Shown in pieces: positions 18,647 through 43,376 of a stretch of 45,850 bases of DNA. How positions within the stretch are numbered: the stretch's first letter is position 1; each line of letters begins with the position of its first letter. Source of the DNA: Deltaproteobacteria bacterium (GTDB lineage Bacteria > Myxococcota_A > JAADFL01); NCBI GenBank assembly GCA_013152945.1, contig JAADFL010000185.1:1-45850 (forward strand), in the 5' to 3' direction. The notes under the pieces are model-generated. The model did not search any database, had not been told where the DNA came from, and saw only the letters and a program-made list of their open reading frames with translations. A program made the position numbers and the translations under genes.

Positions 18647-18652
18647 GCGGAA

Positions 18653-21287: not shown

Positions 21288-21300
21288 AAAGGTGAGGAAC

Positions 21301-22584: not shown

Positions 22585-22620
22585 AGATGCTGTAAAAATT
22601 CTGCTTAAAGAGGTTTGACA

Positions 22621-25028: not shown

Positions 25029-26036
25029 ATGGCAGGAGACAAAACCAGGATAGCCCTGCTCGGACTGGTCCTTGGGAGCCCCGGTAATCCGGGCCAGGTT
25101 AAAGATTTTCTCCTGGAACTTTTCAATGATCCTTACATGCTGGATTTACCGTTTCGAAAGTTCCTGGCCCGCATCATCGCCGATAGGAGAGCGCCAAAGG
25201 CTGTTGCCAAGTACGAGATGATCGGAGGCAAATCTCCACTCATGGAGATCAGCCGAAGCCAGGTATCTGCAATCGCCGACCTGCTCAATGACGATGAAAA
25301 AGAGGTTCAACCATTCCTGGCTGCAAGGTACCTCGAACCTTCATTGCCCGGTGCGCTTTCTTCAATAGCATCCGGTGGATTCGATATCGTGGTCGCATTG
25401 CCCCTGTACCCTCACCAGAGCAGGGTTACAACAGGTTCCAGCCTGGCCCGGTTGCACAGCATTGCGCCGGACTTCAAATTATCCGGGAGAATAATCGAGA
25501 TCGGATCATACTGCGACCACCCGGGATATATCTCGAGCCTTGCATCAACGGTAGAACAAGCCTTGAAAAAGCTTGGAACAACACAAAAGGACACGCACCT
25601 GCTCTTTGCAGCCCACAGCATTCCGCTCAAGCTTGCCGGGAAAGGAGATCCTTATCCGGGCCAGGTGAAACGTACCGTTCAGGCAATATTGGAAAAACTG
25701 AAATGGACGGGCACCCATAGCCTTGCTTTTCAAAGCAGGGCCGGCCCTGTCTCCTGGCTCGGGCCCGGTACAAGCGAAGAGGTCAAGAGATTGGCCGCCT
25801 CGGGTACAAGGAACATTTTGGTCGTTCCCACCAGCTTTGTGTCTGATCACCTCGAAACCCTTTTCGACCTGGATATCGAGCTTGCCCGTATCGCCGCCAA
25901 GGAAGGAATCAAGGGTTATGCAAGGGCACCGGCACTTAATGACAGGCCGGAATTCATTTCTGCTCTTGCCCTGATGGTGAATGACGAAATCTCCCGCACA
26001 ACCAATAAGAATACGTCCATGTTCGGGCCTTCTTGA
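25029..26036 (+). CDS. hemH: Ferrochelatase
   Basis: A 335-residue enzyme that inserts Fe2+ into the porphyrin. The catalytic His196 is in FAAHSIPLKL. The block FQSRAGPVSWLGPGTSE and the C-terminal SDHLETLFDLDIE carry the other conserved residues. The N-terminal LGLVLGSPGNP departs slightly from the usual NLGSP form. ATG directly follows the hemN stop. Confidence 0.94.
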   Translation: MAGDKTRIALLGLVLGSPGNPGQVKDFLLELFNDPYMLDLPFRKFLARIIADRRAPKAVAKYEMIGGKSPLMEISRSQVSAIADLLNDDEKEVQPFLAARYLEPSLPGALSSIASGGFDIVVALPLYPHQSRVTTGSSLARLHSIAPDFKLSGRIIEIGSYCDHPGYISSLASTVEQALKKLGTTQKDTHLLFAAHSIPLKLAGKGDPYPGQVKRTVQAILEKLKWTGTHSLAFQSRAGPVSWLGPGTSEEVKRLAASGTRNILVVPTSFVSDHLETLFDLDIELARIAAKEGIKGYARAPALNDRPEFISALALMVNDEISRTTNKNTSMFGPS

Positions 26037-26117
26037 ACAGGGCGTAAAATTAAATTACTTATGCAAAGAGGAGCGCAAGAGAGATAAAAAAAGAAAACAA
26101 GAGAAAGAAGAAATAGC

Positions 26118-27554
26118 ATGAAAAGGATAGCTGTACTGGGAGGCGGCATTTCAGGGCTTGCAACCGCCTTTCGTATCGATCAGGGCCTAAAAAAGGCAGG
26201 CACAAGCTATGACCTTGTCATACTGGAGCAGGCATGCCGGCCCTGCGGCAAGATACAAAGTGAGAAGATTGGTGATTTCATAGTCGAATCCGGGCCGAAC
26301 GGCTTCCTTGACAATGAACCTGCAACAGACAGGCTTGTTAAAGACCTTGGAATAGAAAACCGCCTCATTCCATCCAGGCCGGAAGGACAAAAAAGATACC
26401 TCTTGAGCAAAGGGAAACTTACAGCCTTGCCGGGCTCACCTTTATCTTTTCTGTTATCGCCCCTACTGACTCTCAAGGGAAAGGCCAGGGTCGTAATGGA
26501 GAGGTTCATTTCAAAAGGTATGGGCCTTGACGAGAGCGTCCTTGATTTCGTTACCCGCAGACTCGGCAGGGAAGCTGCGGAAACTCTCATCGACGCAATG
26601 GTTTCCGGTATTTATGCAGGCGACATTTCCAGGCTTTCGATCAAGGCCGCCTTTCCGCGCATATTCGAGCTGGAACAGGAGTACGGCGGCCTTTTCAAGG
26701 CCCTGCCCAAGGTGGCCGGGGAAAGAAAGAAAATGGGCCAAGAGCCCGGACCGACCGGACAACCGAGAGGCAGGCTGACCTCTTTTGACCAGGGAATGGA
26801 CGTGATAACAAAGGCTCTGGCTCAGGTCCTGTCACACAAGATACGGACCAGCACGGTCGTATCTGCGATCAGGCGTGAAAACCACGGGTACTCCATTCTG
26901 GTTCATGGAATGCACAAGCAGGGCCGCGCCAGACATTGTAAGGCCCCATTGACAAAAACAGGGATAATTCATGCGGACGCCGTGGTGCTCGCCCTTCCGG
27001 CTTACAGCGCATCCCGCGTACTGGCGAAGGCATGCAAGCAAGCTTCAGCCGCACTTGCAAATATTCCGTATGCAGGCATCACAGTTATCGCACTTGCATT
27101 CGACAGGTCAAATGTCGGGCACCGGCTGGACGGTTTCGGTTTCCTTGCCCCCAGAAACCAGGGGGTAAGGATACTGGGCGCAAGGTTTGCATCGAGCACA
27201 TTCGAAAACAGGGCTCCAAAAGAAAGTGTTCTGATCGAGGCCATGGCAGGCGGAATCACTGATCCGGGTGCACTGGACCTCGGAGCCCGGGACCTGGTCG
27301 ACATGGCCTTGGATGAACTCTCGGAGCCGCTCGGTATTGACTCCAGGCCCAAGCTGTCCGCCGTCTTCAGACACGTGACGGCAATACCCCAGTATAATCT
27401 CGGTCACATCGATCTTGTCTCGAGCATTGAAGAAGCTGAATCAAAGACGCCCGGCCTCTGGATAACGGGTAATGCCCTTCGCGGTGTTGCAATGAACAAG
27501 TGTATCGCCGAATCCGAAAGGGTGGCCGGGGCACTGATGAATTATCTCGGTTGA
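26118..27554 (+). CDS. hemY: Protoporphyrinogen oxidase (FAD, HemY type)
   Basis: A 478-residue flavoprotein. The N-terminal FAD-binding motif is VLGGGISGLATAF, followed by FIVESGPNGFLD and ending with LWITGNALRGVAMNKCIAE, the C-terminal FAD-contact block of this family. It oxidises protoporphyrinogen IX (or coproporphyrinogen III in some lineages) and normally uses oxygen. A purine-rich 81-base spacer separates it from hemH. Because HemN is present, the classical protoporphyrin route is more likely than the coproporphyrin-dependent one. Confidence 0.93.
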   Translation: MKRIAVLGGGISGLATAFRIDQGLKKAGTSYDLVILEQACRPCGKIQSEKIGDFIVESGPNGFLDNEPATDRLVKDLGIENRLIPSRPEGQKRYLLSKGKLTALPGSPLSFLLSPLLTLKGKARVVMERFISKGMGLDESVLDFVTRRLGREAAETLIDAMVSGIYAGDISRLSIKAAFPRIFELEQEYGGLFKALPKVAGERKKMGQEPGPTGQPRGRLTSFDQGMDVITKALAQVLSHKIRTSTVVSAIRRENHGYSILVHGMHKQGRARHCKAPLTKTGIIHADAVVLALPAYSASRVLAKACKQASAALANIPYAGITVIALAFDRSNVGHRLDGFGFLAPRNQGVRILGARFASSTFENRAPKESVLIEAMAGGITDPGALDLGARDLVDMALDELSEPLGIDSRPKLSAVFRHVTAIPQYNLGHIDLVSSIEEAESKTPGLWITGNALRGVAMNKCIAESERVAGALMNYLG

Positions 27555-27561
27555 AAAAGGC

Positions 27562-29949
27562 TCAATCCCAACCAGGTTCCTCGATCTTTGAAACAGCAGC
27601 CAGGTCGGCTTGATCTGTTGCCATGAAGACCCTGTAAAGAGCGGACATGGCGTGATAAGTATAGTCTATCCTTTGCTTGTTGTGTGTCAGGCAGTACCTG
27701 ACACCTCCCCATGCCAATTCAGGGTTTGGGAAATAATAATCGTTCCTGCCCTTTTCCACTTGTTGCTGGATAATGAACCTGGCTGCGGTCAATGCAGCGG
27801 TCCTGAATTTTTCCTGTACTTCTCTCGGCGCGCCTGCTTCCTTGGCAAGCATGAAACTTGCAGCGGTTCCCTCGGTATAAACGAATGTGTGCATTGCAGG
27901 CACCTCGAAGGCCACCTTGAAATAACCACCGAGGTAGTCCGGATAAGGCGCTTTTCCAGGTGTGAACTGATAGCTGTCTATTATCCAATTGGATACCAGG
28001 TTCGAATTCTCCAAGTACCTGGGGTCAGGATCGTGTCTGTACATTTCTTCCATTGCCATTGCAATCCAAGGCTGGAACTGGACCAGTTCTTTTCTAAGGC
28101 GTTCCTCGTACAAGCCGTCGGGCCGTCTCTTGTCCATCCGTTCCTTGAACCATTTCATGTTGGTCTCCATGGACTTTCTGAATATTTTCTTCCATTTTTC
28201 ATCCTTGTATTTACCGTACAGCCTTGCCACTGCATATAGAATCTCTCCCGGATATATTGAATTGCGCCAATTGTAATAGCTGGTCCCCGGACCGGCATAG
28301 TAATGATAGAAGCCGCCCTCGTCCCTTTCCATGTACTCAACGAAAGCAGCCAGTCCATCGAGCAACTTTTGCTTTTCCGGCGTAAGCTCGACGCCTGATT
28401 TTTCCGCCTGTGTAAGCCCGAGTATGGCTACTGCGGCAGCCCCCATCTTTGCAACCGGCGGACCGCCGTCCGATGGCTTGTACATAAGCAGCGCCACCTT
28501 GGGTCCGGGCAAGGGCTTGCCATGCCACGTCTTTATTTGCTCCAGAGGCCTTCCCTCCCGGTCCAACGGCGGCCCTCCCCACTTCAGGTGTGCCTCCATG
28601 AAGCGCCAGCCCGCCTCGATGGTCTTCAGGTTCGCCGGGTTCGGGGCAACCTGTTGTGCCAATAGAAGGCCGAATATTCCTACGCAATGGCGCACGAAGT
28701 TGAATTCCTTTGGCTTGCTGTACTTGTCCACGGACGGGAAATACCTGTAAACAAACCTGCCTGACGGATCCTTCTGGTTGACCCGTATCCAACGCGCAAG
28801 ACCGGCAATCGCCTTCTTTATCCTTTCCCTGGTCATGTCCTTCATGGAAGGAGGAGAGCCAAGTCCCCTGTACAGGTCCTGCACGGGACCACCCGGCCCG
28901 TTTTCGCGAAAATGTATGATGCGGAATCTTTTCAATTCAAGGTCTTGATCCAGGTAGGCCTTTTCGGGCAGGCCGGCCCATTTCATCAAGGCCTTTAGAA
29001 AATCCGCGGTCGAGTCCTTGTTCCTGGTAACCGAGTACCATGGAGGCAGGGTAAAGTTTCTTGCCTTGTTCCTGACTACAGCGCCGTACAGTCCGGGTTC
29101 GAATGTCCGCCACAGGAGCTCATCGTCCCTCGGCCCCTTGAGTACACCTTTGTCGAAGATGACACCTATTTCCACTGTCAAAGACTTGTCCAGGGCCACA
29201 GCCAGTCTACCGTACTTATTTTGGAATCCCTTTTTCTCATAGCCCTTTCTTGCAGAACGCGCAGCCTTGATTACCGCCCCTGAAAGGGTCTTGGCCCTTG
29301 CATAGTAAAATCCAAGATGCCTTCCTTTCGGTCTCAAGCACAACGTGACTTCCCAATCACCCTTCTTCAAGATCACCTTTCGATCCTTTGAAAAAGATCC
29401 GATTGCCTTTCCCTTCATGGTATTCCTGGCTATCTCGAGGAGACGGGCCTTGACCTCCCTTGTAAGCCCTGATGGGGGATCGAACCGCTCGTACAAGATC
29501 AGGTCCTTTGTTATCAATCTCGCCGAATACCGGGCCAGGCTCCTAAGCAGTGCCAACCTGGTCAATACGTTGTCGTCGGGAATCGGAGCACGGACAGCCG
29601 TATGAGGGTCCACCAATATTTTCTTGATGCCGGCCTTGTCGAGAACCGCAGACAAGGCCTTGGCCCTTCTTTCTCCGAGGGCCTTTTCAACTCCCGGCAA
29701 TTTGCTTGCCTTTACAGGAACCGTTCCTCTAGCCGCGAGCGATTCAGCCTTCGGTCCAATGGCGAGGACCTTGCCGAGGTTGTAGAACGTGGCATATTCA
29801 TGTTCCCGGGCAGGTTCTTTCTTCGGCAACCTTGTTTCCTTGCACGAGGAAAGAAAAAAGGATGCCATCAAGATTGCAAGGCCGGTCCAAGAACCCAAAT
29901 ATCGGCCGACGGGAAAAAAGCATGATTCGTAACCGGCTTTCTTTACCAT
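27562..29949 (-). CDS. Large lipoprotein with AMMECR1-like domain and (alpha/alpha)6-type catalytic-like domain
   Basis: A 795-residue lipoprotein from ATG 29949, which follows GGAG by 5 bases; a GTG at 29982 is less likely. The signal ends ASFFLSSC. Residues ~150-370 match the AMMECR1 domain outline. LLEIARNTMKG, VTLCL, a VEIGVIF strand, FEPGLYGAVV, then FLKALMKWAGLPE and a DLELKRF ending follow the usual order, but the hallmark LRGCIG motif is not conserved. Residues ~390-780 are helical hairpins with aromatic and acidic residues (GFYHYYAGPG, YPGEILYAVARL, AYPDYLGG-like), as in six-hairpin glycosidases, lyases or epimerases. Function is unknown; polysaccharide processing at the outer membrane is a guess. 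It lies 37 bases behind another lipoprotein gene. Confidence 0.7.
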   Translation of the reverse strand: MVKKAGYESCFFPVGRYLGSWTGLAILMASFFLSSCKETRLPKKEPAREHEYATFYNLGKVLAIGPKAESLAARGTVPVKASKLPGVEKALGERRAKALSAVLDKAGIKKILVDPHTAVRAPIPDDNVLTRLALLRSLARYSARLITKDLILYERFDPPSGLTREVKARLLEIARNTMKGKAIGSFSKDRKVILKKGDWEVTLCLRPKGRHLGFYYARAKTLSGAVIKAARSARKGYEKKGFQNKYGRLAVALDKSLTVEIGVIFDKGVLKGPRDDELLWRTFEPGLYGAVVRNKARNFTLPPWYSVTRNKDSTADFLKALMKWAGLPEKAYLDQDLELKRFRIIHFRENGPGGPVQDLYRGLGSPPSMKDMTRERIKKAIAGLARWIRVNQKDPSGRFVYRYFPSVDKYSKPKEFNFVRHCVGIFGLLLAQQVAPNPANLKTIEAGWRFMEAHLKWGGPPLDREGRPLEQIKTWHGKPLPGPKVALLMYKPSDGGPPVAKMGAAAVAILGLTQAEKSGVELTPEKQKLLDGLAAFVEYMERDEGGFYHYYAGPGTSYYNWRNSIYPGEILYAVARLYGKYKDEKWKKIFRKSMETNMKWFKERMDKRRPDGLYEERLRKELVQFQPWIAMAMEEMYRHDPDPRYLENSNLVSNWIIDSYQFTPGKAPYPDYLGGYFKVAFEVPAMHTFVYTEGTAASFMLAKEAGAPREVQEKFRTAALTAARFIIQQQVEKGRNDYYFPNPELAWGGVRYCLTHNKQRIDYTYHAMSALYRVFMATDQADLAAVSKIEEPGWD

Positions 29950-29986: not shown

Positions 29987-30496
29987 TTATGGACTTACCA
30001 GACAAGACCAGAGCCCGTTACAATCGGGGGCAGCCAAAACACACTGGGCGCGCTTGGGGTCGAGGTCCCATAACTTGTCGCACCCCGGGCTGCCGGCACC
30101 GGCCAGGCATGCCTCCAAGGTATTGCCGAAAGGAGATCCCGGTATTTGCAGAAAACCGCAATCATCCAGAAGATAGCATGCCTTTTCGCAGATCTTTGGT
30201 TGTTCCTCTGAATCTCCAACTTCTCGATTCTCATGATCACCTTCCATCTCGAATGCTTCAGGCTCGAGCGAGTCCTTGTCTGCATCTGCATGTTCCATGT
30301 CTGCATGTTCCATGTCCGGGACTGAATAATCCTTCTCACCCTGTTCAAGGGCATCGGCCCTTTCCTCCAAAATCGAGTCTTCTTTATCCGCTCCGGGCAA
30401 AGAAGCCAGTTCAATCACCTCCAGCTTGCAACCTGGTTGTACTGCCGATGATACGAAAAAAACCATTACAAATAATCTTTCAACCAGAGGTTTCAT
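29987..30496 (-). CDS. Small acidic, Cys-containing lipoprotein
   Basis: A 169-residue predicted lipoprotein, signal ending VQPGC. Residues ~35-100 are strongly acidic and low in complexity, with the direct repeat MEHADMEHADADKD. The C-terminal ~70 residues hold eight cysteines (CEKACYLLDDCGF, ACLAGAGSPGC, QCVLAAPDCNGLWSC), probably a disulfide-bonded domain. I do not recognise the family. It is divergent from the radical SAM operon and upstream of the AMMECR1-like lipoprotein gene. Confidence 0.7.
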   Translation of the reverse strand: MKPLVERLFVMVFFVSSAVQPGCKLEVIELASLPGADKEDSILEERADALEQGEKDYSVPDMEHADMEHADADKDSLEPEAFEMEGDHENREVGDSEEQPKICEKACYLLDDCGFLQIPGSPFGNTLEACLAGAGSPGCDKLWDLDPKRAQCVLAAPDCNGLWSCLVSP

Positions 30497-30681: not shown

Positions 30682-31446
30682 GTGTCCGATTACATCAGTC
30701 TCAACATCGAGGTTACAGACAACTGCAATCTCAATTGCAGCATGTGCGACCAGGCTATTTCAGGAGGGCTGCCCCACGGCAATGAAAAGGGATACATCTC
30801 GAAAGATACATGGAACAAGATACTCGATTCCCTCGAGGGATTCGACAAGGAGATACACATTTCCGCTTTCTGGCTGGGCGAACCCCTGATGCATCCGGAG
30901 TTCGAGTCACTAATCAGGACGGCCTTTGAAAGAAACCATAAAAACCATCTGTTCAGGGATCTGAAGATACACACGAACGGCGTACTGCTGTCAGAAAAGA
31001 GGACCGATGCCATACTGGACTGTGCTTCCATGCAAGGGCTTTCGCCCGACACCTTCACGTTTCTGCACTGCTCCATCGAGGCGGTCAAACCCGAAACCTA
31101 CAAGTTGATAAAAGGCGGGGATTTCCTGGAAATAGTGAAGGCCAACCTCTTGCACTTCCTGGATATGCGGGCCAAGAGAAAACTCTCGTTTCCAAAGCTG
31201 ACCGTAGCCTTTATAGTAACCGAAGAAAACCGGGAAGAAGCAAGGGATTTCCTGGAAACATGGTCCCGTGTCTTCAAAAAGCGGGGCCTCGAATTCCAGG
31301 TGACCGGAGACTGGCCGCCCAAGCTCATGGACACCATATATTTCAGGCGACTAAACTCGTCCGACCAGGAAGCAGCGGACATGCTTCACCAAGAGGTTCT
31401 GTCCAGGCTCAACATTACGTCGGGACGAATCGAGGAGTCTTTCTGA
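30682..31446 (+). CDS. Radical SAM protein 1 (core only, SPASM encoded separately)
   Basis: A 254-residue protein from GTG 30682, which follows AAGGAG by 6 bases. The 4Fe-4S motif is Cys15, Cys19, Cys22 (CNLNCSMC). The SAM-contact motif is FWLGEPLMHPEF, a LGEP variant of the usual GGEP. KIHTNGVLL and HCSIEAVKPETYKLIKG are the later beta-strand motifs. No C-terminal auxiliary-cluster Cys domain is present; that domain is the next gene. It is first in a ten-gene overlapping operon. It presumably generates a 5'-deoxyadenosyl radical; the substrate is unknown. Confidence 0.88.
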   Translation: MSDYISLNIEVTDNCNLNCSMCDQAISGGLPHGNEKGYISKDTWNKILDSLEGFDKEIHISAFWLGEPLMHPEFESLIRTAFERNHKNHLFRDLKIHTNGVLLSEKRTDAILDCASMQGLSPDTFTFLHCSIEAVKPETYKLIKGGDFLEIVKANLLHFLDMRAKRKLSFPKLTVAFIVTEENREEARDFLETWSRVFKKRGLEFQVTGDWPPKLMDTIYFRRLNSSDQEAADMLHQEVLSRLNITSGRIEESF

Positions 31447-31784
31447 TGGCCGGCCGTGAACCCTGCGCCGGGCTCTGGGAAACCCCGGTAGTCAACCACA
31501 ACGGTGATGTCACCACCTGTTGCCTCGATGTCAAGATGAAGAATAAGCTGGGAAACCTGGGACAAGAAAGCCTGGTTTCGTTGTGGAGAGGCCCGAAGAT
31601 CCACTCGTGGAGAATCGCCCAAATTTTGGGCCGCTTCGATATGAGTGGTCCGGCCTGTCCGGACTGCAACTACAAGAGCGCCGGAACGTATCCACAGCGG
31701 AAGATCGTGGAATATCTCGAAAAAACAGGTGAGGCAAAGGTTTTGGCGGATTACCTTTCGAGGCAGGGGGAAAAGACGGATTGA
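31446..31784 (+). CDS. Stand-alone SPASM-domain protein 1
   Basis: A 112-residue protein starting at ATG 31446, sharing one base with the preceding stop (TGATG). It has a GAGGAG ribosome site (31432-31437) inside the end of the radical SAM gene, 8 bases away. Residues 7-28 (PCAGLWETPVV, then CC at 25-26) and Cys71/Cys74 (CPDC) are the SPASM auxiliary-cluster pattern normally found at the C-terminus of radical SAM/SPASM enzymes. It should bind an Fe-S cluster and act as a subunit with radical SAM protein 1. The strong internal ribosome site argues against a sequencing error. Confidence 0.8.
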   Translation: MAGREPCAGLWETPVVNHNGDVTTCCLDVKMKNKLGNLGQESLVSLWRGPKIHSWRIAQILGRFDMSGPACPDCNYKSAGTYPQRKIVEYLEKTGEAKVLADYLSRQGEKTD

Positions 31785-31814
31785 AAAAGCTTCCATGAAA
31801 GAGAAAGATCTGAA

Positions 31815-32858
31815 ATGAAAGGTCCGGATCAAATATGCATTGTCACGAACGTGACATGCAATCTCTCTTGCTTGAATTGTGACGCCTGGAAGTCCGAACC
31901 CAGAAAGCCGATGTCCAAAAGGCAAATCCGCAATCTGCTCGCTCGTTTGAGAAGCTGGCTCGGCCCGATCCGCCCTGACGGGTCCAGGCCGTTCGAGGTA
32001 TACTTTGCCGGAGGCGAGCCCTTCATGCGAAAGGACATGGAGGAAATACTGTCGTGCTGCCGTGACCTGGGCATTTGGTGCCAAGTCACCACCAACGGCA
32101 CGCTCCTTACGGAAAAGAGGGCCGAAAAGGTGATCCGCGCCGAACCCGGGGCCATAGGAATCTCCATCGATGCCGCAAGGCCCGAAATACACGACTACTT
32201 GAGGGGCAAAGAAGGTGCGTTCGAAAATGCATGGGCCGCGGTCCGGAGACTCGGCAGGCTGAAACTTGAAAGAAACGCCTCCACTGCAGTGCAGGTGCAT
32301 GCCTTGCTCTCTGGCTTTCATCCGCAAGAGGTGCTTGATTTGGTGGACATGACCGCCCGGACAAGAGGCGTTTTGAACCTTATAATACAGGCCCTGGTTG
32401 CACCTTGTTTTTCCGAGGTGAAAACAGGGTGGTGGAAGAACAATCCTTTCTGGCCCCGGGACATGGATCTCATGAACCGCGTGATCGACGAGCTGATACA
32501 AAAGAAGAGAAAATACGAATCAGAGGGAAGGCCGGTCCTGGGAAACTCCGAGGCACAGCTCGAACTCATACGCCTGTATTTTACCGACCCCGCCAGGCGG
32601 GTGCCCGGAAGATGCACTGTAGGCGGGCATTCTTTCAATGTCGATGTAAACGGCGATGTCAGGATCTGTCACTTCATGGAACCCGTGGGCAACATATTGA
32701 AGCAGGACCCGGAAAAAATCTGGCTTTCAAAGGCTGCGGCAAAGGTCAGGAAAAAAATAGAGTCATGCGTTTCCAACTGCAACCTCATGAACTGCAACTG
32801 GTTCGAGGACGGCCTCGAAGGGGTTGACGCAGTGCTCGCGGGATTGAAGAGATCATGA
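31815..32858 (+). CDS. Radical SAM/SPASM-type protein 2
   Basis: A 347-residue protein with CNLSCLNC at residues 15-22, AGGEPFMRKDME as SAM motif and TTNGTLL. The C-terminal cysteine region has GRCTVGGHSFNVDVNGDVRIC, then CVSNCNLMNCNW. The latter resembles the same region of protein 4 (CKRSCNLLNCNY), and both have a WWK...WPRD insert, so proteins 2 and 4 are probably products of duplication. The start lies 30 bases after the SPASM gene with a weak ribosome site; the stop overlaps the next start (ATGA). Confidence 0.88.
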   Translation: MKGPDQICIVTNVTCNLSCLNCDAWKSEPRKPMSKRQIRNLLARLRSWLGPIRPDGSRPFEVYFAGGEPFMRKDMEEILSCCRDLGIWCQVTTNGTLLTEKRAEKVIRAEPGAIGISIDAARPEIHDYLRGKEGAFENAWAAVRRLGRLKLERNASTAVQVHALLSGFHPQEVLDLVDMTARTRGVLNLIIQALVAPCFSEVKTGWWKNNPFWPRDMDLMNRVIDELIQKKRKYESEGRPVLGNSEAQLELIRLYFTDPARRVPGRCTVGGHSFNVDVNGDVRICHFMEPVGNILKQDPEKIWLSKAAAKVRKKIESCVSNCNLMNCNWFEDGLEGVDAVLAGLKRS

Positions 32859-33805
32859 GCAGGCCCTTTCCAGTACCCCGTGTCTTGATAGTCCACATCA
32901 CCGACAGGTGTAACCTCTCATGCAGGTTCTGCGATCTACCCAAGGGGCCAAGGGATTTTTCGTTCAAAAACCTTTCCTCCTTGTTGAAAGAGGGCAGCGA
33001 CCTCGGAATACCCAACCTGGTGCTCACAGGAGGAGAGCCGTTGCTCCACCCGGAGATTGAATCCATCCTGTCAATGTCATCATCCCTTGGCTTTGGTCTG
33101 AACATAACCACCAACGGCACGCCGCTTGTAGACCTTGCAGGCATGCTCGCCGGCTTCAAGGTTGCCTCCGTATCGGTGTCAATCGACGGTAAAGAAGAGA
33201 CCCACGACGACCTGAGAGGAGTCAAGGGAGCTTACAAACGCACCATGGCGGGAATAGAAGCCTTGAAAAGCAAGGCGCCGAAAACAAGACTGTCGATATA
33301 CATGGTGGTCACCGAAGTAAATGCGGCCGAGTTGAATGATGTGTACGATCTATCCGGGCGAATCGGGGCGGATTTCAATTTCTGGCCGGTGAACAACCAG
33401 CCCGGACTTTACATGAGATCCGACACGGCCAGACAGGCATACATATCATTCGTCCAAAGGCTGGCGCAGGAAAACCGGGAATTCGAAAAGAGGAAGGATT
33501 ACTATCTCACCGGCCTCGAGTACCACCGGGGAAAAAGGCTGCGTGTAAGGTGCATGGGCCTTTCCGACCAGGCCGGAATATCCGTAACCGGGGAGCTTCT
33601 GCCCTGCTGCGTGTGGGGAGAGAAAAGCCTGATCATAGGCAATGCAGTCGAACAAGGACTCCCGGCCCTGCTGTCTTGCTCAAAGGCCGAGGCCTTGAGA
33701 AAAAAGATATACAGCCGGGGTTGTGTCGGCCTGTGTTATAATCATTCCCTGTACGAGTTTTCGCAAAAGACAGGTGAACCGTTCCTGCTGGGGGTCGAGT
33801 ATTGA
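32855..33805 (+). CDS. Radical SAM/SPASM-type protein 3
   Basis: A 316-residue protein with CNLSCRFC at residues 19-26, LTGGEPLLHPEIE, ITTNGTPL and VSIDGKEETHDDLRG. It ends with a short auxiliary-type Cys region (RCMGLSDQ, LLPCCVWGE, GCVGLCYNHS). This arrangement is like peptide- or protein-modifying radical SAM enzymes with SPASM or twitch domains. It overlaps both neighbours by 4 bases. Confidence 0.87.
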   Translation: MSRPFPVPRVLIVHITDRCNLSCRFCDLPKGPRDFSFKNLSSLLKEGSDLGIPNLVLTGGEPLLHPEIESILSMSSSLGFGLNITTNGTPLVDLAGMLAGFKVASVSVSIDGKEETHDDLRGVKGAYKRTMAGIEALKSKAPKTRLSIYMVVTEVNAAELNDVYDLSGRIGADFNFWPVNNQPGLYMRSDTARQAYISFVQRLAQENREFEKRKDYYLTGLEYHRGKRLRVRCMGLSDQAGISVTGELLPCCVWGEKSLIIGNAVEQGLPALLSCSKAEALRKKIYSRGCVGLCYNHSLYEFSQKTGEPFLLGVEY

Positions 33806-34806
33806 TCCACGGATTAATCGAAAGAACGGCGGATCTGGTTTTGCAGAAACCCCGCACGGTTCATATCAGCCCTACTTACAGGTGTACCTTGAAGTGCATG
33901 CAGTGTGATTTATGGAGGCTTCCAAACGACGGTGAGCTTTCATCCTCCCGGTGGATCGGGGTAATCAAGGCATTCAAGGAATACCTGGGACCGTTTGCAC
34001 TCAAGATTTCCGGAGGCGAACCCTTCCTGGTACCGGGTATGATGGAGTTGGTGGAGCGTGCAAAAGCAATGGATCTGTACGTGGGCATTTCCACCAACGG
34101 CACATTGTTGAACGATGAAACGGCAAGGAGGATTGTACGCGCCGGGGTCGACGAGGTCCATGTATCGATTGATTCGATGAACCCGAAAATCCATGACCAC
34201 ATGCGGGGAGCCCCCTTGGCCTTCAAGAGAGCCATGCAAGCAATCGAAAGGCTTGCAAGTCTGAATGGTGAGACAAAGATATGCCTGGCCACGGTAATTA
34301 CATCCTTGAACCTCGAAGGACTCATGGACCTCGTGATCTGGGCTGCGAACAACCCCGGCCTGTACACCATAACTTTGCAGGCATTGTTCCAAAACTTCGG
34401 CGCACCTTACGACCCGGCCTGGTGGAAGAGAAGCGAACTGTGGCCGAGGGACAGGGACCTCGTAACTTCAGTTTTCGATCGCCTCATGGATTACAAGTCA
34501 TCACACTGGGAACTGGCCAACCCGATGAACCAGTTGGCTGCGATGAAAGATTACTTCCTTCACCCTGACCGGACCCCGACAGCCGTATGCCATGCAGGCA
34601 AGACGGACATCGCCGTCGATCCCTTTGGCGGGCTGCGGCTTTGTTTCAGCCTGCCTCCGATCGGCAACCTGTTGAGAAGCAGCCCGGGCCGCCTGTTGCA
34701 TTCCAAAGAGGCTGCAAAGCGAAGGAAGCAAATCGCCTCGTGCAAACGAAGCTGCAACTTGTTGAACTGCAATTACGAGGACGTTCGAAGGGACTCGTCG
34801 CCATGA
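33802..34806 (+). CDS. Radical SAM/SPASM-type protein 4
   Basis: A 334-residue protein from TTG 33802, overlapping the previous stop (TTGA). CTLKCMQC is at residues 28-35, after a ~25-residue N-terminal extension. SGGEPFLVPGMME and STNGTLLNDE follow. The C-terminus has VCHAGKTDIAVDPFGGLRLC and CKRSCNLLNCNY, paralleling protein 2. The shared WWKRSELWPRDRDL segment further ties the two. Substrate is unknown. Confidence 0.86.
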   Translation: MIHGLIERTADLVLQKPRTVHISPTYRCTLKCMQCDLWRLPNDGELSSSRWIGVIKAFKEYLGPFALKISGGEPFLVPGMMELVERAKAMDLYVGISTNGTLLNDETARRIVRAGVDEVHVSIDSMNPKIHDHMRGAPLAFKRAMQAIERLASLNGETKICLATVITSLNLEGLMDLVIWAANNPGLYTITLQALFQNFGAPYDPAWWKRSELWPRDRDLVTSVFDRLMDYKSSHWELANPMNQLAAMKDYFLHPDRTPTAVCHAGKTDIAVDPFGGLRLCFSLPPIGNLLRSSPGRLLHSKEAAKRRKQIASCKRSCNLLNCNYEDVRRDSSP

Positions 34807-35918
34807 ACCGGGCCCTTGAAAAAGATCTTGTCGACCTTGGATTCCATCTTTCGAGGAGAACAGGGATTCCGCTGGTCAGGCCGGACTGGGTGTCAATCAA
34901 CGTCACATTGCGTTGTAACCTGAAATGTGAAATGTGCGTCACTTGCTACGATGCTCCGGACGAGCTTGGTACAGGTGAATTGGTCCGTATCATCGACCAG
35001 GTGGCGGACTGGGGAGTACCCATCGTCAACTTGCTCGGCGGCGAACCAACAATCAGAAAAGATATTGCGCCTGTCCTGAAAAGGGCGCAGCAGAGGGGCT
35101 TGCTTACAACCCTCACCACGAATGGAACTCTCTGGGATACTGAAATGCTGGAACTGGTAGCCGGCCTGAACATGGTTCACGTCAACTTTTCCATAGACGG
35201 GCTGGAACAGACCCATGACTCCATACGTGGAAAGGGGACATTTAAAAAAGTAACATCTACTCTTTCAGCCTTGAGACAGGCTGAAGACAAATATACAAAA
35301 AATCCCGGATTTTACAGAAAGGCCATCAATGTCAATTCACTCGTAACCAGCGCCAACCTGGAGGAGCTGGTCGATCTTGCAAGACTTGCGAAAGCACTTG
35401 GGGCCGACAAAATACAGTTCTTGAATCTTTTCGATCATGGCCCGGCGGCAAGAAAGAGCAGGCTCTGGATAAAAGAAAAGGACTTGCCCGGGCTGGACAG
35501 GGCAATAGACAGGCTCATCGAGTATTTCAAACAAGACAAGCAGGGGTTCGGACCGGTCAACAGTCTTGAAGATCTGGCCATGATCAAACAATACTATCGC
35601 GGCACGATGAAACCGGAAGATGCTCCGTGTTACAACGGGTACAAAGAGCTGTACATCAATGTAAACGGTGATGGCCTCATGTGTGACGGAAAATTGAACT
35701 TCCTCAACGGCTCCTTTGGCAATGCCAGACGGCAGCCCATCAAGGAAATGTGGACCAGCTCGGCGGCCCGCACCATGAGAAAGAGAGTAGCTGCCTGTGA
35801 AAAACCGTGCCTCCAGGATTGCTACTTAAGGCGTGAATCCGATGATCCGGTAGGTATAATCACCTCGATGGCCGGACATGTTATGCAGGGCCTGGGTATT
35901 TTGGGAGGTTCGAAGTGA
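34803..35918 (+). CDS. Radical SAM/SPASM-type protein 5
   Basis: A 371-residue protein from ATG 34803 (ATGA overlap; a longer upstream frame is an artefact of the overlap). CNLKCEMCVTC begins at residue 38, giving the three cluster cysteines plus an extra Cys at 48. LGGEPTIRKDIA and TTNGTLWDTEM follow. The C-terminus has CYNGYKELYINVNGDGLMC and CEKPCLQDC, a SPASM-like set, then a hydrophobic tail GIITSMAGHVMQGLGILGG that could touch a membrane or partner. Confidence 0.87.
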   Translation: MNRALEKDLVDLGFHLSRRTGIPLVRPDWVSINVTLRCNLKCEMCVTCYDAPDELGTGELVRIIDQVADWGVPIVNLLGGEPTIRKDIAPVLKRAQQRGLLTTLTTNGTLWDTEMLELVAGLNMVHVNFSIDGLEQTHDSIRGKGTFKKVTSTLSALRQAEDKYTKNPGFYRKAINVNSLVTSANLEELVDLARLAKALGADKIQFLNLFDHGPAARKSRLWIKEKDLPGLDRAIDRLIEYFKQDKQGFGPVNSLEDLAMIKQYYRGTMKPEDAPCYNGYKELYINVNGDGLMCDGKLNFLNGSFGNARRQPIKEMWTSSAARTMRKRVAACEKPCLQDCYLRRESDDPVGIITSMAGHVMQGLGILGGSK

Positions 35919-36700
35919 ACCCGATTAAACCGGTACTGCAAATCGAGCCCACGGATTTTTGTAACCTTGCATGTGCCATGTGCTCCCCCCAAAAGAGCGG
36001 CAAGCCGCATGGAAACGTGAAACCAGGCTTCATGGCATTCGATTTGTACAAGAAAATAATACATGGGATAGCAAAGAGAGGGCCTGACCTGGACCACATG
36101 ATACTGCAATGGCTGGGAGAACCGACCCTGCATCCGCAATGGCTCGACATGTTGGAAACAGCAATAAGGGAGGCAGGTCACAGGTTCGGTTATTTCAGGG
36201 TGGATACGAATGCGGTTCTCCTCGACCATGATGCATCCATTCGGCTCTGCCGTATTGCAAGAGACAACCCGGGCAGGCCCATAGTACTCATCTTTTCCCT
36301 GGATGCCGCAACCAGGGATACATACATTAAATTAAAGGGCAAGGACCGCTTCGAACAGGTTGTCTCGAATATCGAGGACTTTTTAAGGCTTCGAAAAGAA
36401 AAGGTAAATCCCGCCGAGTCACCACTGAATGTCCAGTTCCAACTTGTGCTTCAACAAGGCAACGCACACGAGGTAAGAGCATTCATCGACAAATGGGATG
36501 GTTTCCTGTTCGACCTGGGCTCCAGTGACACGTATGATACTATAATGATAAAACGGCTCGCCGTGGGAACCGGCGGCCAAGGCCAAAGACAGGCTGATTT
36601 GCTTTACGAGAAAACAATCAGCCGCCTCGGCCTGAGACCCGGGAAGCTTGGTGCCTGCCGGCTCGAACTTTGGCTCGACAGGCCATGGGAGGAGGAATGA
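35915..36700 (+). CDS. Radical SAM protein 6 (core only, SPASM encoded separately)
   Basis: A 261-residue protein from GTG 35915. CNLACAMC is at residues 16-23. QWLGEPTLHPQW shows the same LGEP variant as proteins 1 and 7, and FSLDAATRDTYIKLKGKDRF is close to the matching part of protein 7. It ends WLDRPWEEE just where the SPASM domain would begin. The Glu codons at its end form the ribosome site of the next gene. It is the second case in this operon of a radical SAM core separated from its SPASM domain. Confidence 0.87.
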   Translation: MNPIKPVLQIEPTDFCNLACAMCSPQKSGKPHGNVKPGFMAFDLYKKIIHGIAKRGPDLDHMILQWLGEPTLHPQWLDMLETAIREAGHRFGYFRVDTNAVLLDHDASIRLCRIARDNPGRPIVLIFSLDAATRDTYIKLKGKDRFEQVVSNIEDFLRLRKEKVNPAESPLNVQFQLVLQQGNAHEVRAFIDKWDGFLFDLGSSDTYDTIMIKRLAVGTGGQGQRQADLLYEKTISRLGLRPGKLGACRLELWLDRPWEEE

Positions 36701-37041
36701 AAAGAGGAAGCACCAATCACAGGAGTCCTTGTCCCGGCCTGTGGCTTACCCCTGTAATCAGGCATGACGGTGAGCTTCACGTGTGCTGCGCTGATGTGGA
36801 AGGTGAAATAAAAGTAGGCAATCTCAAGGACGCGGATTTTGACGAGCTTTGGTTTGGAAGCAGGATGAATGAATACAGGGCATGGCACTTAAGGGGTGAA
36901 TTCCACAAGATGCCCAAATGTGAAACCTGCGGCGGCATCAATTTCTACAAGCTCGACAAGGAGCAGATAAAAAACTGGTGCATGGAAAACAATGAAATGG
37001 ATGCCTTGGAGGCATTCCAGGAAAGAACGGGCGGCGATTGA
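36697..37041 (+). CDS. Stand-alone SPASM-domain protein 2
   Basis: A 114-residue protein from ATG 36697, overlapping the previous stop (ATGA) and directly preceded by GGAGGA. Cys12 (PCPGLWLTPVIRHDGE), Cys30-Cys31 (VCCADV) and Cys75/Cys78 (CETC) give the same five-Cys pattern as SPASM protein 1, and the two are clearly paralogous. It should supply the auxiliary Fe-S cluster for radical SAM protein 6. Confidence 0.8.
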   Translation: MKRGSTNHRSPCPGLWLTPVIRHDGELHVCCADVEGEIKVGNLKDADFDELWFGSRMNEYRAWHLRGEFHKMPKCETCGGINFYKLDKEQIKNWCMENNEMDALEAFQERTGGD

Positions 37042-38129
37042 CCACGGCCTCCCATAAATTCGTTCCATGGTTCGACGGCTCATACTTGGTGCTGGAACTC
37101 ACCAACCGTTGTCCTGCAGCGTGTACACATTGCATACAAAAATACAGGAACACACACGAGCATTTCTCCATATCCAGCGACATGGATCCAAAGGTCATAG
37201 AAAAACTCGCCGAGTCCGCCTGGTCGGAGGGGTTGTATTTCGATACCTTGATTTTGTTCTGGCTTGGTGAACCTCTGATGCATCCTCGTTTCAATGATAT
37301 CTACACCAGGCTGCTTGATTACAATGCAAAAAAGCCATGGTTCAACAAGGTGGAAGTTCACACCAACGCCCTGCCCCTCGGCCCGGCGCAAAGAAGAGCG
37401 GCTGTCATCAACCAGGATGTCCCGGCAAAATGGCATATATCCCTGGATGCCGTAACAAGAGATACATACAGGGCGATCAAGGGTGTGGACAGGCTCGAAG
37501 AGGCCGAAGCCAACACGATCAAGTTACTCGAAACAAGGGGAAAGGAAAAATGGCCGGCAATCGTGTTTCAAATGGTGGTCCAGGATGAAAATGCCGGTGA
37601 GGCTTTGAAATTCGCCCACAGGTGGAAATCCATAGACGAGAAAAAGGGCAGGTCCTGCAGCACCAGGGGGTACACGGTTCCGCCGGATGGAAATGACTAC
37701 GTGTTCTTGAGACAACTCGACGCACTGGAACCGGAAGACCAGGCCGGGGCCGATGAACTGTACTTCAAGGTATGTGCTGAACAGGGAATACCCGGGCCTG
37801 AAAGGACCATTAAAAAAATACAGGGGAGCAGGGTGTGCTCCGGACCATGGAAGAGCCCGACCATCGGGGCTGATGGAAGAATGACCGTGTGCACGAGGGA
37901 CTCTTCATTCGAGCTGGAAGTAGGTAAATTCGAAAAGAGTTCAAACCTTGCAGCCGCATGGTGGTTTGGTGAAAAAATCGAAACCCTGCGCAAGGCCCAT
38001 CTCGACGGCAGGAAAGAACTTCCTTCCTTGTGCAGGGCTTGTCCCATTCCGAGATCATCCAACTACACGTCCATATCGGGAAGCGAGATTGCATGGTACA
38101 GGGCATGGAAAACAACTTTGGGGAAATAA
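37038..38129 (+). CDS. Radical SAM/SPASM protein 7 (fused form)
   Basis: A 363-residue protein from TTG 37038 (TTGA overlap). CPAACTHC is at residues 25-32, FWLGEPLMHPRF is the SAM motif, and SLDAVTRDTYRAIKG follows. In contrast to proteins 1 and 6, the SPASM-type part is in the same chain. SRVCSGPWKSPTIGADGRMTV and LCRACPIP align by eye with the stand-alone SPASM proteins, so this is the intact version of the same architecture. Confidence 0.88.
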   Translation: MTTASHKFVPWFDGSYLVLELTNRCPAACTHCIQKYRNTHEHFSISSDMDPKVIEKLAESAWSEGLYFDTLILFWLGEPLMHPRFNDIYTRLLDYNAKKPWFNKVEVHTNALPLGPAQRRAAVINQDVPAKWHISLDAVTRDTYRAIKGVDRLEEAEANTIKLLETRGKEKWPAIVFQMVVQDENAGEALKFAHRWKSIDEKKGRSCSTRGYTVPPDGNDYVFLRQLDALEPEDQAGADELYFKVCAEQGIPGPERTIKKIQGSRVCSGPWKSPTIGADGRMTVCTRDSSFELEVGKFEKSSNLAAAWWFGEKIETLRKAHLDGRKELPSLCRACPIPRSSNYTSISGSEIAWYRAWKTTLGK

Positions 38130-38833
38130 TGCCGCAGGCCTTATTCCTGGACCTTGACGGTCTGCTGATAGACAGCGAGGCTCTCTGGGACGAAGCGGAT
38201 CGACTGTTCCTGTTCAAATACAAGGTGCAGGACAGGAAGGAAATCGCCGGGCTGAAAAAATTCGTCATGGGGCGTTCGCCCGAAACCGTCATGTCTTTCT
38301 ACAAGGAGAGATTCGCCCTTGAAAAAGATCCTGCCGATCTTGTGCGTGAGCGTGAAGACATGGTGGCTCACCTCTTCGAGACAAGGCTTATACCCATGCC
38401 CGGGGCACTGGATTTCCTGAAAAGGGAAAAGGCTGAAAAAAGGATTCTTTGCCTGGTGACGGGATCCACTGAAAGGCTCGCGCTTTTGGCAATTGACAAG
38501 TGTTCCTTTAAAAAATACCTGGACATGATCGTGACATCCTGTGACATCAAGGCGGGAAAACCCGAACCGGAAATATACGAGAAGGCGCTCGAGAAAACCG
38601 GGGTCAAAGCCCACCGGGGTTTGGCGCTGGAAGACTCGCCGAACGGCGTCAGGGCTGCAAAGGCTGCAGGAATCGCCTGTATGGGAGTGGCGGATAAGAG
38701 GTTTGTCGAACCAGGAATGCTCGTTGCTGCCGGAGCGGATTTCGTGGTGACCGGTCTAGACCAGGTAAGTAATGAACGCATGAACAAAGTCATGCGACAA
38801 GCCATGCACGAAATACAAAAACAGGCAAGGTAA
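38129..38833 (+). CDS. HAD-superfamily hydrolase (phosphatase or phosphoglucomutase-like)
   Basis: A 234-residue protein from ATG 38129, which shares one base with the previous stop (TAATG) behind GGGGA. Motif I is FLDLDGLLIDSE with the nucleophile Asp, motif II is CLVTGST, the motif III lysine is in KAGKPEPEIYEKA, and motif IV is LALEDSPNGVRAAKAAG. This is subfamily IA, which includes phosphoglycolate phosphatase and beta-phosphoglucomutase. As the last gene of the radical SAM operon it may remove a phosphate from the pathway's substrate or product, though this is inference. Confidence 0.9.
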   Translation: MPQALFLDLDGLLIDSEALWDEADRLFLFKYKVQDRKEIAGLKKFVMGRSPETVMSFYKERFALEKDPADLVREREDMVAHLFETRLIPMPGALDFLKREKAEKRILCLVTGSTERLALLAIDKCSFKKYLDMIVTSCDIKAGKPEPEIYEKALEKTGVKAHRGLALEDSPNGVRAAKAAGIACMGVADKRFVEPGMLVAAGADFVVTGLDQVSNERMNKVMRQAMHEIQKQAR

Positions 38834-42330: not shown

Positions 42331-42422
<92 letters not shown>

Positions 42423-42441
42423 GACAATCCAATCAAATCGG

Positions 42442-42528
42442 CGGAGAGCGAGGGATTCGAACCCCCGGTGGAGAAAACCCCACACTTGATTTCGAATCAA
42501 GCGCCTTCGACCTCTCGGCCAGCTCTCC
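42442..42528 (-). tRNA. tRNA-Ser(CGA)
   Basis: Class II tRNA with acceptor GGAGAGC/GCTCTCC, anticodon stem CTTGA/TCAAG, loop TTCGAAA (anticodon CGA, codon TCG) and a variable arm. The 3' CCA is not encoded (CCG follows the discriminator). Confidence 0.95.
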
Positions 42529-42562
42529 AAACCTGCTTTCGCTCCATGGTTCGATAGCCCGG

Positions 42563-43012
42563 CTATCTCCTGGAGCGAAAAAATTTTTCAAGGAGCGAAG
42601 CGGTTTCCCGCTCTAGCACACCCCCCTTGACCTCTGCCCTGTGATTCAACCTCGGGTCAGAGGTGATCCGGAACATGGTATCCACGGACCCGGCCTTCGG
42701 ATCCGGACAACCATACACCACTCTTTCGACCCTTGCCAATACCGCGGCTCCGGCACACATGGGACAGGGTTCCATGGTGGACACAAGGGTGCAACCTTCG
42801 AGCCGCCACGTGCCGAGCCTGGCACCGGCCTCTCTCAAGGCCAAGAGTTCCGCGTGGGCCGTGGGATCGTGATCCCTTTCCCTGCGGTTACCTCTCGACG
42901 CCAGGATCTCGCCTGCCGGACCGATAACCACTGCCCCTACAGGCACTTCTCCGGCTTCTTCGGCCTTGACCGCTTCATCGATGGCCAGGCGCATTATACG
43001 TTCCAGGTCCAA
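42563..43012 (-). CDS. tadA: tRNA-specific adenosine deaminase
   Basis: A 149-residue zinc deaminase. The catalytic HAE motif is in PTAHAELLAL and the second zinc motif is EPCPMCAG. It converts A34 to inosine in tRNA-Arg(ACG). It starts at TTG 43012, or possibly at ATG 42994, which would lose six residues. It lies between serine tRNA genes and its own substrate tRNA-Arg(ACG), with a terminator-like hairpin in front. Confidence 0.95.
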   Translation of the reverse strand: MDLERIMRLAIDEAVKAEEAGEVPVGAVVIGPAGEILASRGNRRERDHDPTAHAELLALREAGARLGTWRLEGCTLVSTMEPCPMCAGAAVLARVERVVYGCPDPKAGSVDTMFRITSDPRLNHRAEVKGGVLERETASLLEKFFRSRR

Positions 43013-43029
43013 TTGGAATCCAGTGCCTG

Positions 43030-43056
43030 AAAACGCCCGGCCGATACGGCCGGACG
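43030..43056 (-). terminator. Intrinsic terminator between tRNA-Arg and tadA
   Basis: On the minus strand a 10-bp G+C-rich stem (43056-43047 with 43043-43034, one G-U pair) closes a TAT loop and is followed by TTTT (43033-43030). It would end transcripts of the upstream tRNAs, implying a separate or read-through start for tadA. Confidence 0.6.
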
Positions 43057-43071
43057 TTCCCGGCTATCTTT

Positions 43072-43148
43072 TGGCGTGCCCAAAGGGACTCGAACCCCCA
43101 ACCTCCTGATCCGTAGTCAGGTGCTCTATCCAATTGAGCCATGGGCAC
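43072..43148 (-). tRNA. tRNA-Arg(ACG)
   Basis: 77 nt with acceptor GTGCCCA/TGGGCAC, D-arm GCTC/GAGC, anticodon stem CCTGA/TCAGG with loop CTACGGA (anticodon ACG, read as ICG after TadA), T-arm GGGTTCGAGTCCC and an encoded CCA. Confidence 0.96.
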
Positions 43149-43162
43149 GCGGCTAATGCTCC

Positions 43163-43255
43163 TGGCGGAGAGAGAGGGATTCGAACCCTCGGTGGAGCTA
43201 TCAACCCCACACTCGCTTAGCAGGCGAGCACCTTCGGCCGCTCGGTCATCTCTCC
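43163..43255 (-). tRNA. tRNA-Ser(GCT)
   Basis: Class II tRNA with acceptor GGAGAGA/TCTCTCC, anticodon stem CTCGC/GCGAG, loop CTGCTAA (anticodon GCT, codons AGC/AGT), a variable arm and an encoded CCA. Confidence 0.95.
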
Positions 43256-43293
43256 GCATACCAAGTAAAACATGTTTTCAAAGAGTCGCGCGG

Positions 43294-43376
43294 CGGAGGA
43301 GGAGGGATTCGAACCCCCGGTGCTCTCGCACAGCGGTTTTCAAGACCGCCGCCTTAGACCACTCGGCCACTCCTCC
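43294..43376 (-). tRNA. tRNA-Ser(TGA)
   Basis: Class II tRNA with acceptor GGAGGAG/CTCCTCC, anticodon stem GCGGT/ACCGC, loop CTTGAAA (anticodon TGA, codons TCA and others by wobble). CCA is not encoded. Confidence 0.95.

What the first reader, a model, noticed from the sequence alone, without database searches (positions are those of the whole stretch)
30682..38833. Operon of seven radical SAM proteins, two free SPASM proteins and a HAD phosphatase
Ten co-directional genes, almost all overlapping by 1-4 bases, encode seven different radical SAM proteins with intact CxxxCxxC motifs. Such density in a single operon is far above the one or two radical SAM enzymes of typical RiPP or cofactor loci. 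No precursor peptide, transporter, RRE-like protein or protease is visible inside the operon, so the substrate may be a protein, lipid, sugar or cofactor encoded elsewhere. The terminal HAD phosphatase suggests a phosphorylated intermediate. Two subgroups are seen: LGEP-type (1, 6, 7) and GGEP-type (2-5), with 2 and 4 as likely duplicates. This is my best candidate for an undescribed pathway.
Basis: partly seen in the sequence, partly recalled or inferred. Interest (0 to 1): 0.87.

Follow-up and report, generated by a model that had tools for sequence, protein, structure and literature searches.

The report
Seven-enzyme radical SAM glycan pathway
One compact gene cluster encodes seven radical SAM enzymes; six of them belong to families that, together with two sugar-transferring enzymes, are kept or missing almost as a block across many uncultured Myxococcota, which points to an undescribed pathway that probably builds or modifies a sugar-containing molecule.

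Summary
In detail: ten co-directional, mostly overlapping genes at 30682-38833 encode seven radical SAM proteins (RS1-RS7), two free auxiliary-cluster proteins (SP1, SP6) and a HAD phosphatase. None reaches an NCBIfam equivalog cut-off. Six of the seven (all but RS2) are members of distinct orthogroups that other Myxococcota families carry dispersed in smaller modules. Three orthogroups searched across 377 phylum genomes (RS3, RS5, RS7) are all-or-none: 44 of 50 positive genomes have all three, and the six exceptions are at most 88% complete. In every relative examined RS3 is fused to a GT4-type glycosyltransferase; a second GT-B/coiled-coil glycosyltransferase, often near RS5, is in 25/25 positive and 0/28 negative genomes tested. 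The window's genome holds both as separate genes on other contigs. Cysteine patterns are Twitch-like (one auxiliary cluster), not the seven-cysteine SPASM motif; RS1 and RS6 have their Twitch domain as a separate gene. Best reading: a conserved glycan or glycoconjugate pathway of glycosyltransferases plus radical SAM/Twitch enzymes. Substrate and reactions are inferred, not shown. A neighbouring Cys-rich lipoprotein, an ABC transporter and the HAD were tested as partners and found not specific. No description was found in the papers held.

The parts
30682..31446 (+). RS1: radical SAM core without auxiliary domain (LGEP type)
   Evidence: Pfam Radical_SAM 1.4e-14; member of the RS1 orthogroup, 306 bits against the profile built from relatives
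31446..31784 (+). SP1: free-standing Twitch/SPASM-type auxiliary iron-sulfur protein; presumed partner of RS1 (TGATG stop-start overlap)
   Evidence: Pfam SPASM 5e-11; Cys spacing C-x17-C ... C-x2-C; orthologues separate from RS1 in all families seen
31815..32858 (+). RS2: radical SAM/Twitch-like, GGEP type, window-specific relative of RS4
   Evidence: Pfam Radical_SAM + SPASM; long branch beside RS4; 205 bits against RS4 profile
32855..33805 (+). RS3: radical SAM/Twitch-like, GGEP type; orthologue is fused to a GT4 glycosyltransferase in every relative examined
   Evidence: 345 bits against RS3 profile; alignment A5; 49 phylum genomes including this one; fusions of 713-997 aa in 14/14 loci read
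33802..34806 (+). RS4: radical SAM/Twitch-like, GGEP type; directly follows RS7 in most relatives
   Evidence: 291 bits against RS4 profile; RS7->RS4 adjacent for 27 of 32 RS7 genes
34803..35918 (+). RS5: radical SAM/Twitch-like, GGEP type; fused to an RS7 paralogue in several families
   Evidence: 452 bits against RS5 profile; 48 phylum genomes
35915..36700 (+). RS6: radical SAM core without auxiliary domain (LGEP type)
   Evidence: Pfam Radical_SAM 1.9e-10; 315 bits against RS6 profile; fused to its Twitch domain in families f22, f24, f51
36697..37041 (+). SP6: free-standing Twitch/SPASM-type auxiliary iron-sulfur protein; presumed partner of RS6 (ATGA overlap)
   Evidence: Pfam SPASM 4e-12; Cys spacing C-x17-C ... 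C-x2-C
37038..38129 (+). RS7: complete radical SAM + Twitch protein (LGEP type)
   Evidence: 382 bits against RS7 profile; 46 phylum genomes with a strong match
38129..38833 (+). HAD-IA phosphatase (beta-phosphoglucomutase/hexitol-phosphatase-like), operon-terminal, window-specific accessory
   Evidence: Pfam HAD_2 1.2e-23; no NCBIfam equivalog cut-off reached; no homologue in relative loci

Best explanation
The operon is the most compact form seen of a conserved Myxococcota pathway made of at least six orthogroups of radical SAM/Twitch-like enzymes (RS1+SP1, RS3, RS4, RS5, RS6+SP6, RS7; a seventh, RSx, pairs with RS1 in relatives) and two GT4-type glycosyltransferases, one covalently joined to RS3 in relatives and one carrying a coiled-coil tail. 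Shown: gene content, orthogroup membership, all-or-none inheritance of three of the orthogroups and of the coiled-coil glycosyltransferase, the fusion, the GT-B fold of the second glycosyltransferase (predicted), Twitch-like cysteine patterns, and the separate Twitch proteins. Inferred: the glycosyltransferases attach sugar(s) to a carrier or acceptor made elsewhere in the cell, and the radical SAM enzymes carry out 5'-deoxyadenosyl-radical steps (oxidation, epimerisation, dehydration/deamination or cross-linking, in the manner of BtrN or DesII) on the sugar or glycoconjugate. RS1 and RS6 would work as two-subunit enzymes in which a small Twitch protein brings the auxiliary cluster in trans. 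The terminal HAD, if it takes part, would be a local sugar-phosphate phosphatase.
For: Co-occurrence in 377 phylum genomes: RS7 in 46, RS5 in 48, RS3 in 49; all three in 44 of 50; pairwise Fisher P 3e-50 to 2e-56, not corrected for shared ancestry. The six incomplete genomes are 72-88% complete. GT4-RS3 fusion in all 14 loci read, and similarly long open frames in the other relatives. The second glycosyltransferase is in 25/25 positive and 0/28 negative genomes; its model matches solved GT4 enzymes (BshA Z 28.4, rmsd 3.3, 331 aligned; PimB' Z 27.8, rmsd 4.2, 342 aligned). The window's own genome has both: GT4 at G000:C123, 40% identity, E 2e-84; the coiled-coil one at G000:C205, E 1.5e-27, Pfam Glycos_transf_1 8.7e-10. 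Modules conserved: RS7->RS4 27/32, RSx->RS1 16/17, GT4~RS3->RS7 9 (a few loci are the same contig read twice); L053 keeps RS5-RS6-SP6-RS7 in window order; L029 has RS4-GT-RS-B12rSAM-RS5-RS7-RS1-SP1 with a carbamoyltransferase beside it. The RS6-SP6 model's nearest solved structures are BtrN (Z 20.3, rmsd 3.0, 235 aligned) and DesII (Z 19.7, rmsd 4.0, 298 aligned).
Against: No reaction, substrate or product was tested. BtrN/DesII lead only slightly: MoaA (Z 19.0), SkfB and anSME (18.6) are close, and Twitch/SPASM class does not predict chemistry (PMC6231123). The glycosyltransferases could decorate a peptide or protein instead. RS1, RS4, RS6 and RSx were not given their own phylum-wide searches. 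Co-inheritance within one phylum is partly vertical descent. The window operon itself contains no glycosyltransferase. RS2 and HAD are not conserved.
Confidence: 0.55

Rival explanations
1. A peptide or protein modification pathway in which radical SAM/Twitch enzymes cross-link or epimerise a ribosomal product that is also glycosylated, as in mycofactocin or the Bacteroidetes TIGR04157 glycosyltransferase/radical SAM systems.
For: Twitch/SPASM enzymes include RiPP maturases (SkfB, Z 18.6); the GT4 shows a weak match to TIGR04157 (61 bits against a cut-off of 400); a small Cys-rich lipoprotein sits beside RS6 in several families.
Against: No precursor in the operon; no RRE/PqqD domain reported by Pfam in any RS protein; the Cys-rich lipoprotein also occurs in 23 genomes without the set, beside the same type of kinase, and the window's own lipoprotein aligns with it only weakly.
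Confidence: 0.2
2. A cofactor or tetrapyrrole pathway (NirJ/AhbC/AhbD-like), hinted at by the heme operon just upstream.
For: RS2-RS5 give high-ranking but sub-cut-off NCBIfam hits to NirJ and AhbD; heme genes at 17333-27554.
Against: Scores of roughly 60-97 bits against cut-offs of 500-515; the heme genes are not part of the conserved modules found beside the orthologues; glycosyltransferases are the constant partners.
Confidence: 0.05
3. A lineage-specific expansion of radical SAM genes with unrelated functions, brought together by chance or by shared regulation.
For: The genome is rich in radical SAM genes (88) and has other clusters; in relatives the genes lie in separate modules.
Against: All-or-none inheritance of RS3, RS5, RS7 and a glycosyltransferase across nine families; repeated module order; each window protein except RS2 scores far higher against its own orthogroup than the others do.
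Confidence: 0.1

Closest known systems
BtrN (2-deoxy-scyllo-inosamine dehydrogenase, butirosin; PDB 4m7t) and other Twitch enzymes (SpeY, MoaA, SkfB)
   Same: Radical SAM core plus Twitch domain; cysteine pattern for one auxiliary cluster; nearest solved fold to the RS6-SP6 model
   Different: About 22% identity; in RS1 and RS6 of the window the Twitch domain is a separate protein; part of a seven-enzyme set
DesII (TDP-amino-sugar deaminase; PDB 8hzv)
   Same: Second-best structural match (Z 19.7); a radical SAM enzyme acting on a nucleotide sugar
   Different: 15% identity; single enzyme in a deoxysugar cluster
GeoRSP system (NCBIfam TIGR04303)
   Same: Best NCBIfam hit of RS2 (87.9 bits)
   Different: Far below its cut-off of 400; no GeoRSP partners identified
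TIGR04157 glycosyltransferase of Bacteroidetes radical SAM systems
   Same: A glycosyltransferase family named for association with radical SAM
   Different: 61 bits against 400; here the glycosyltransferase is fused to the radical SAM enzyme in relatives
Mycofactocin pathway (MftC radical SAM plus a glycosyltransferase; from own knowledge)
   Same: Radical SAM and glycosyltransferase in one conserved, clade-restricted pathway
   Different: No MftA-type peptide or MftB-type RRE found; seven radical SAM enzymes instead of one

Membership tests
Radical SAM superfamily | CxxxCxxC cluster motif and Radical_SAM domain in RS1-RS7 | tested here: met
   Pfam PF04055 above cut-off for all seven; spacing 4,3 in all seven
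SPASM subfamily (two auxiliary clusters) | Seven-cysteine motif CX9-15GX4C-gap-CX2CX5CX3C-gap-C (PMC6231123) | tested here: not met
   Only 4-5 conserved C-terminal cysteines per protein, although Pfam SPASM matches
Twitch subfamily (one auxiliary cluster) | Four-cysteine truncated domain flanking a beta-hairpin, as in BtrN | tested here: met
   SP1, SP6, RS7: C-x17-C ... C-x2-C; model of fused RS6-SP6 best matches BtrN. Cluster content itself not tested
NCBIfam radical SAM equivalogs (GeoRSP TIGR04303, NirJ TIGR04051, AhbD TIGR04545, W_rSAM_matur TIGR04317, PqqE, MftC) | Score above the curated cut-off | tested here: not met
   Best scores about 58-104 bits against cut-offs of about 265-625
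RiPP biosynthetic locus | Precursor peptide and RRE/PqqD domain | tested here: inconclusive
   No PqqD/RRE hit in Pfam for RS1-RS7 and no precursor in the operon; candidate lipoprotein not specific to the set. A distant RRE or an unlinked precursor cannot be excluded
GT4 glycosyltransferases (the two partner enzymes outside the window) | GT-B fold and GT4-type domains | tested here: met
   Pfam Glyco_transf_4/Glyco_trans_1_4 in the fusion; coiled-coil enzyme model Z 28.4 to BshA
TIGR04157 glycosyltransferase/radical SAM system | Score above cut-off for the glycosyltransferase | tested here: not met
   61 bits against 400
Aminocyclitol/nucleotide-sugar radical SAM enzymes (BtrN, DesII) | Activity on a sugar or cyclitol | not testable with these tools
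   Only fold similarity

The most novel reading that the evidence does not exclude
A clade-defining, previously undescribed glycoconjugate or glycosylated cofactor of Myxococcota, built by two dedicated glycosyltransferases and six to eight radical SAM/Twitch enzymes, some of them two-subunit enzymes whose auxiliary iron-sulfur cluster is supplied by a separate small Twitch protein.
Probability: 0.4. Interest if true: 0.88.

Novelty: new variant of a known kind. Interest (0 to 1): 0.74.

Why it matters
Few described pathways use more than two or three radical SAM enzymes (own knowledge). A set of six or more orthogroups, three of them shown to be inherited as a block with glycosyltransferases across nine families of an uncultured-rich phylum, suggests a cell component whose structure is unknown. 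The glycosyltransferase-radical SAM fusion gives a direct handle on the substrate. The separate Twitch proteins would let one test whether an auxiliary cluster can act in trans. The compact operon in this window (about 8 kb) is a practical unit for expression.

Tried and rejected
Cys-rich lipoprotein as substrate: conserved beside RS6 in several families, but it also occurs in 23 genomes without the set, beside the same type of kinase where read. ABC exporter/DegT aminotransferase/prepilin peptidase beside SP1: the permease is in 320 of 377 phylum genomes, so it is background synteny. HAD phosphatase: not conserved. Heme link: the upstream heme operon looks like ordinary protoheme synthesis. 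RSx or RS7' elsewhere in the window's genome: no orthologue-level score among the other radical SAM regions read, which is not all of them. Plasmid collection: one distant hit. Literature: combinations of radical SAM/SPASM with glycosyltransferase, Myxococcota, lipoprotein, exopolysaccharide, and family names (GeoRSP, spiro-SPASM, TIGR04157, TIGR04317) gave nothing relevant in the open-licence library. The maximum-likelihood tree is the quick version; the careful search did not finish.
Full report
OBSERVATION. Ten genes on the + strand occupy 30682-38833. All junctions overlap by 1-4 bases except SP1/RS2, which has a 30-base gap. Seven carry the Radical_SAM domain, two are stand-alone SPASM-type domains and the last is a HAD-IA phosphatase. 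All seven radical SAM proteins have CxxxCxxC spacing. The genome (4.84 Mb, 218 contigs, 94% complete) has 88 radical SAM matches; seven in 8.15 kb by random placement has a Poisson probability of about 3e-10.

KNOWN FAMILIES. No radical SAM protein reaches an NCBIfam equivalog cut-off; best scores are about 58-104 bits against cut-offs in the hundreds. The C-terminal domains have four or five conserved cysteines with C-x17-C followed by C-x2-C, C-x3-C or C-x3-C-x3/4-C. The seven-cysteine motif that defines SPASM, as given in PMC6231123, is absent, so these are Twitch-like domains expected to hold one auxiliary cluster. In RS1 and RS6 the radical SAM core and the Twitch domain are separate genes with stop-start overlaps (TGATG and ATGA). 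RS1/SP1 are separate in every family where both were seen, sometimes kilobases apart; RS6/SP6 are split in f1, f3, f8, f43 and L053 and fused in f22, f24 and f51. The split is therefore unlikely to be a sequencing frameshift.

RELATIVES. The RS7 profile finds 28 loci in the public genome collection, almost all titled Deltaproteobacteria, Myxococcota or unnamed proteobacteria. A quick tree of 113 radical SAM sequences places window RS1, RS3, RS4, RS5, RS6 and RS7 with different groups of relatives, LGEP and GGEP types on opposite sides; RS2 is a long branch near RS4; an extra group, RSx, pairs with RS1 in relatives and is not in the window. Profiles built from the relatives alone score the matching window protein at 291-452 bits; the best paralogue is lower by 86 bits (RS2 against the RS4 profile) and by 165 bits or more in the other cases.

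CO-OCCURRENCE. In 377 phylum genomes RS7 (strong matches) is in 46, RS5 in 48 and RS3 in 49; 44 of the 50 genomes with any have all three; the six others are 72-88% complete (the Fisher tests used N = 378, a harmless off-by-one, and ignore shared ancestry). Nine families are involved. G033, in the same family (f18) as positive G197 and 97% complete, was not among the positives in any of the three searches. Because RS1, RS4, RS6 and RSx were not given separate phylum-wide searches, their co-inheritance rests on cross-hits and on the loci read.

GLYCOSYLTRANSFERASES. RS3 is preceded in the same polypeptide by a GT4-type glycosyltransferase in all 14 relative loci read (713-997 aa) and lies in similarly long open frames in the other relatives. 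The window's genome keeps that glycosyltransferase as a separate gene at G000:C123 (40% identity, E 2e-84), next to a GDSL-family protein. A second glycosyltransferase with a coiled-coil tail is adjacent to or near RS5 in several families. It is present in 25/25 positive and 0/28 negative genomes, has an orthologue at G000:C205, and its predicted structure (pLDDT 77) matches GT4 enzymes (BshA Z 28.4, rmsd 3.3, 331 aligned). L029 additionally has a glycosyltransferase, a B12-binding radical SAM protein and a carbamoyltransferase in or beside the cluster.

MODULES. RS7 is followed directly by RS4 for 27 of 32 RS7 genes, RSx by RS1 for 16 of 17, and the GT4-RS3 fusion by RS7 in 9 loci; RS5 is fused to an RS7 paralogue in 7 (a few loci are the same contig fetched twice). 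L053 keeps RS5-RS6-SP6-RS7 in the window's order.

CONTROLS. Two neighbourhood partners that looked attractive failed the same test. The Cys-rich lipoprotein beside RS6 is also in 23 genomes without the set, beside the same type of kinase where read. The ABC-2 permease beside SP1 is in 320 of 377 genomes. The HAD and an RS2 orthologue were not found in relatives.

STRUCTURE. A model of an RS6-SP6 fusion (L075; mean pLDDT 78.5, pTM 0.81) is closest to BtrN (Z 20.3, rmsd 3.0, 235 of 246 aligned) and DesII (Z 19.7, rmsd 4.0, 298 aligned), with MoaA (19.0), SkfB and anSME (18.6) and BlsE (18.4) nearly tied. This is compatible with a sugar or cyclitol substrate but does not show it.

MECHANISM. The best-supported reading is a glycan or glycoconjugate pathway: glycosyltransferase steps followed or accompanied by radical SAM steps on the sugar or its acceptor. 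That the genes form one inherited unit I put at about 0.9; the glycan substrate class at about 0.6. The individual reactions are not assignable. The main rival is a glycosylated peptide or protein product.

NOVELTY. The building blocks are known superfamilies, so it is filed as a new variant of a known kind. The combination (six to eight radical SAM/Twitch enzymes, two glycosyltransferases, a glycosyltransferase-radical SAM fusion, Twitch proteins encoded separately) was not found in the literature searched, which covers only open-licence papers.

Noticed in passing
window 27562-29949 (-): Large predicted lipoprotein with a sub-cut-off AMMECR1 match (22.2 bits against 25). AMMECR1 proteins are known partners of a radical SAM protein in the AmmeMemoRadiSam system (own knowledge); this gene is divergent from the operon.
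   Followed up: partly
window 29987-30496 (-): Acidic lipoprotein with a Cys-rich C-terminal domain, divergent from RS1; no clear homologue elsewhere in its genome (one match at E 0.7) and only weak alignment with the Cys-rich lipoproteins near RS6.
   Followed up: partly
window 17333-27554: Compact run of protoheme biosynthesis genes by Pfam: glutamyl-tRNA reductase, PBG deaminase, uroporphyrinogen synthase, ALA dehydratase, class III aminotransferase, URO-D, HemN-like radical SAM, ferrochelatase, amine oxidase.
   Followed up: no
L075 8915-11298, L118 6718-8947, L119 6069-8188: Small Cys-rich lipoprotein with six invariant cysteines paired with a Ser/Thr kinase-like gene across several Myxococcota families, independent of the radical SAM set.
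   Followed up: partly
L029 143-9557: Cluster in a MAG titled Euryarchaeota: RS4-glycosyltransferase-RS2-like-B12 radical SAM-RS5-RS7-RS1-SP1 plus a carbamoyltransferase; possible lateral copy or mis-binned contig.
   Followed up: partly
G000 contigs C78, C111, C212, C70, C74, C218: Other groups of three or four radical SAM matches in the same genome, unrelated to the orthogroups here as far as read.
   Followed up: partly
L081 7147-8160 and L091 7424-8437: A radical SAM protein distantly related to RS7 in family f4 genomes that lack the set; a possible outgroup.
   Followed up: no
window 42331-43376 (-): Cluster of five tRNA genes, four of them serine.
   Followed up: no
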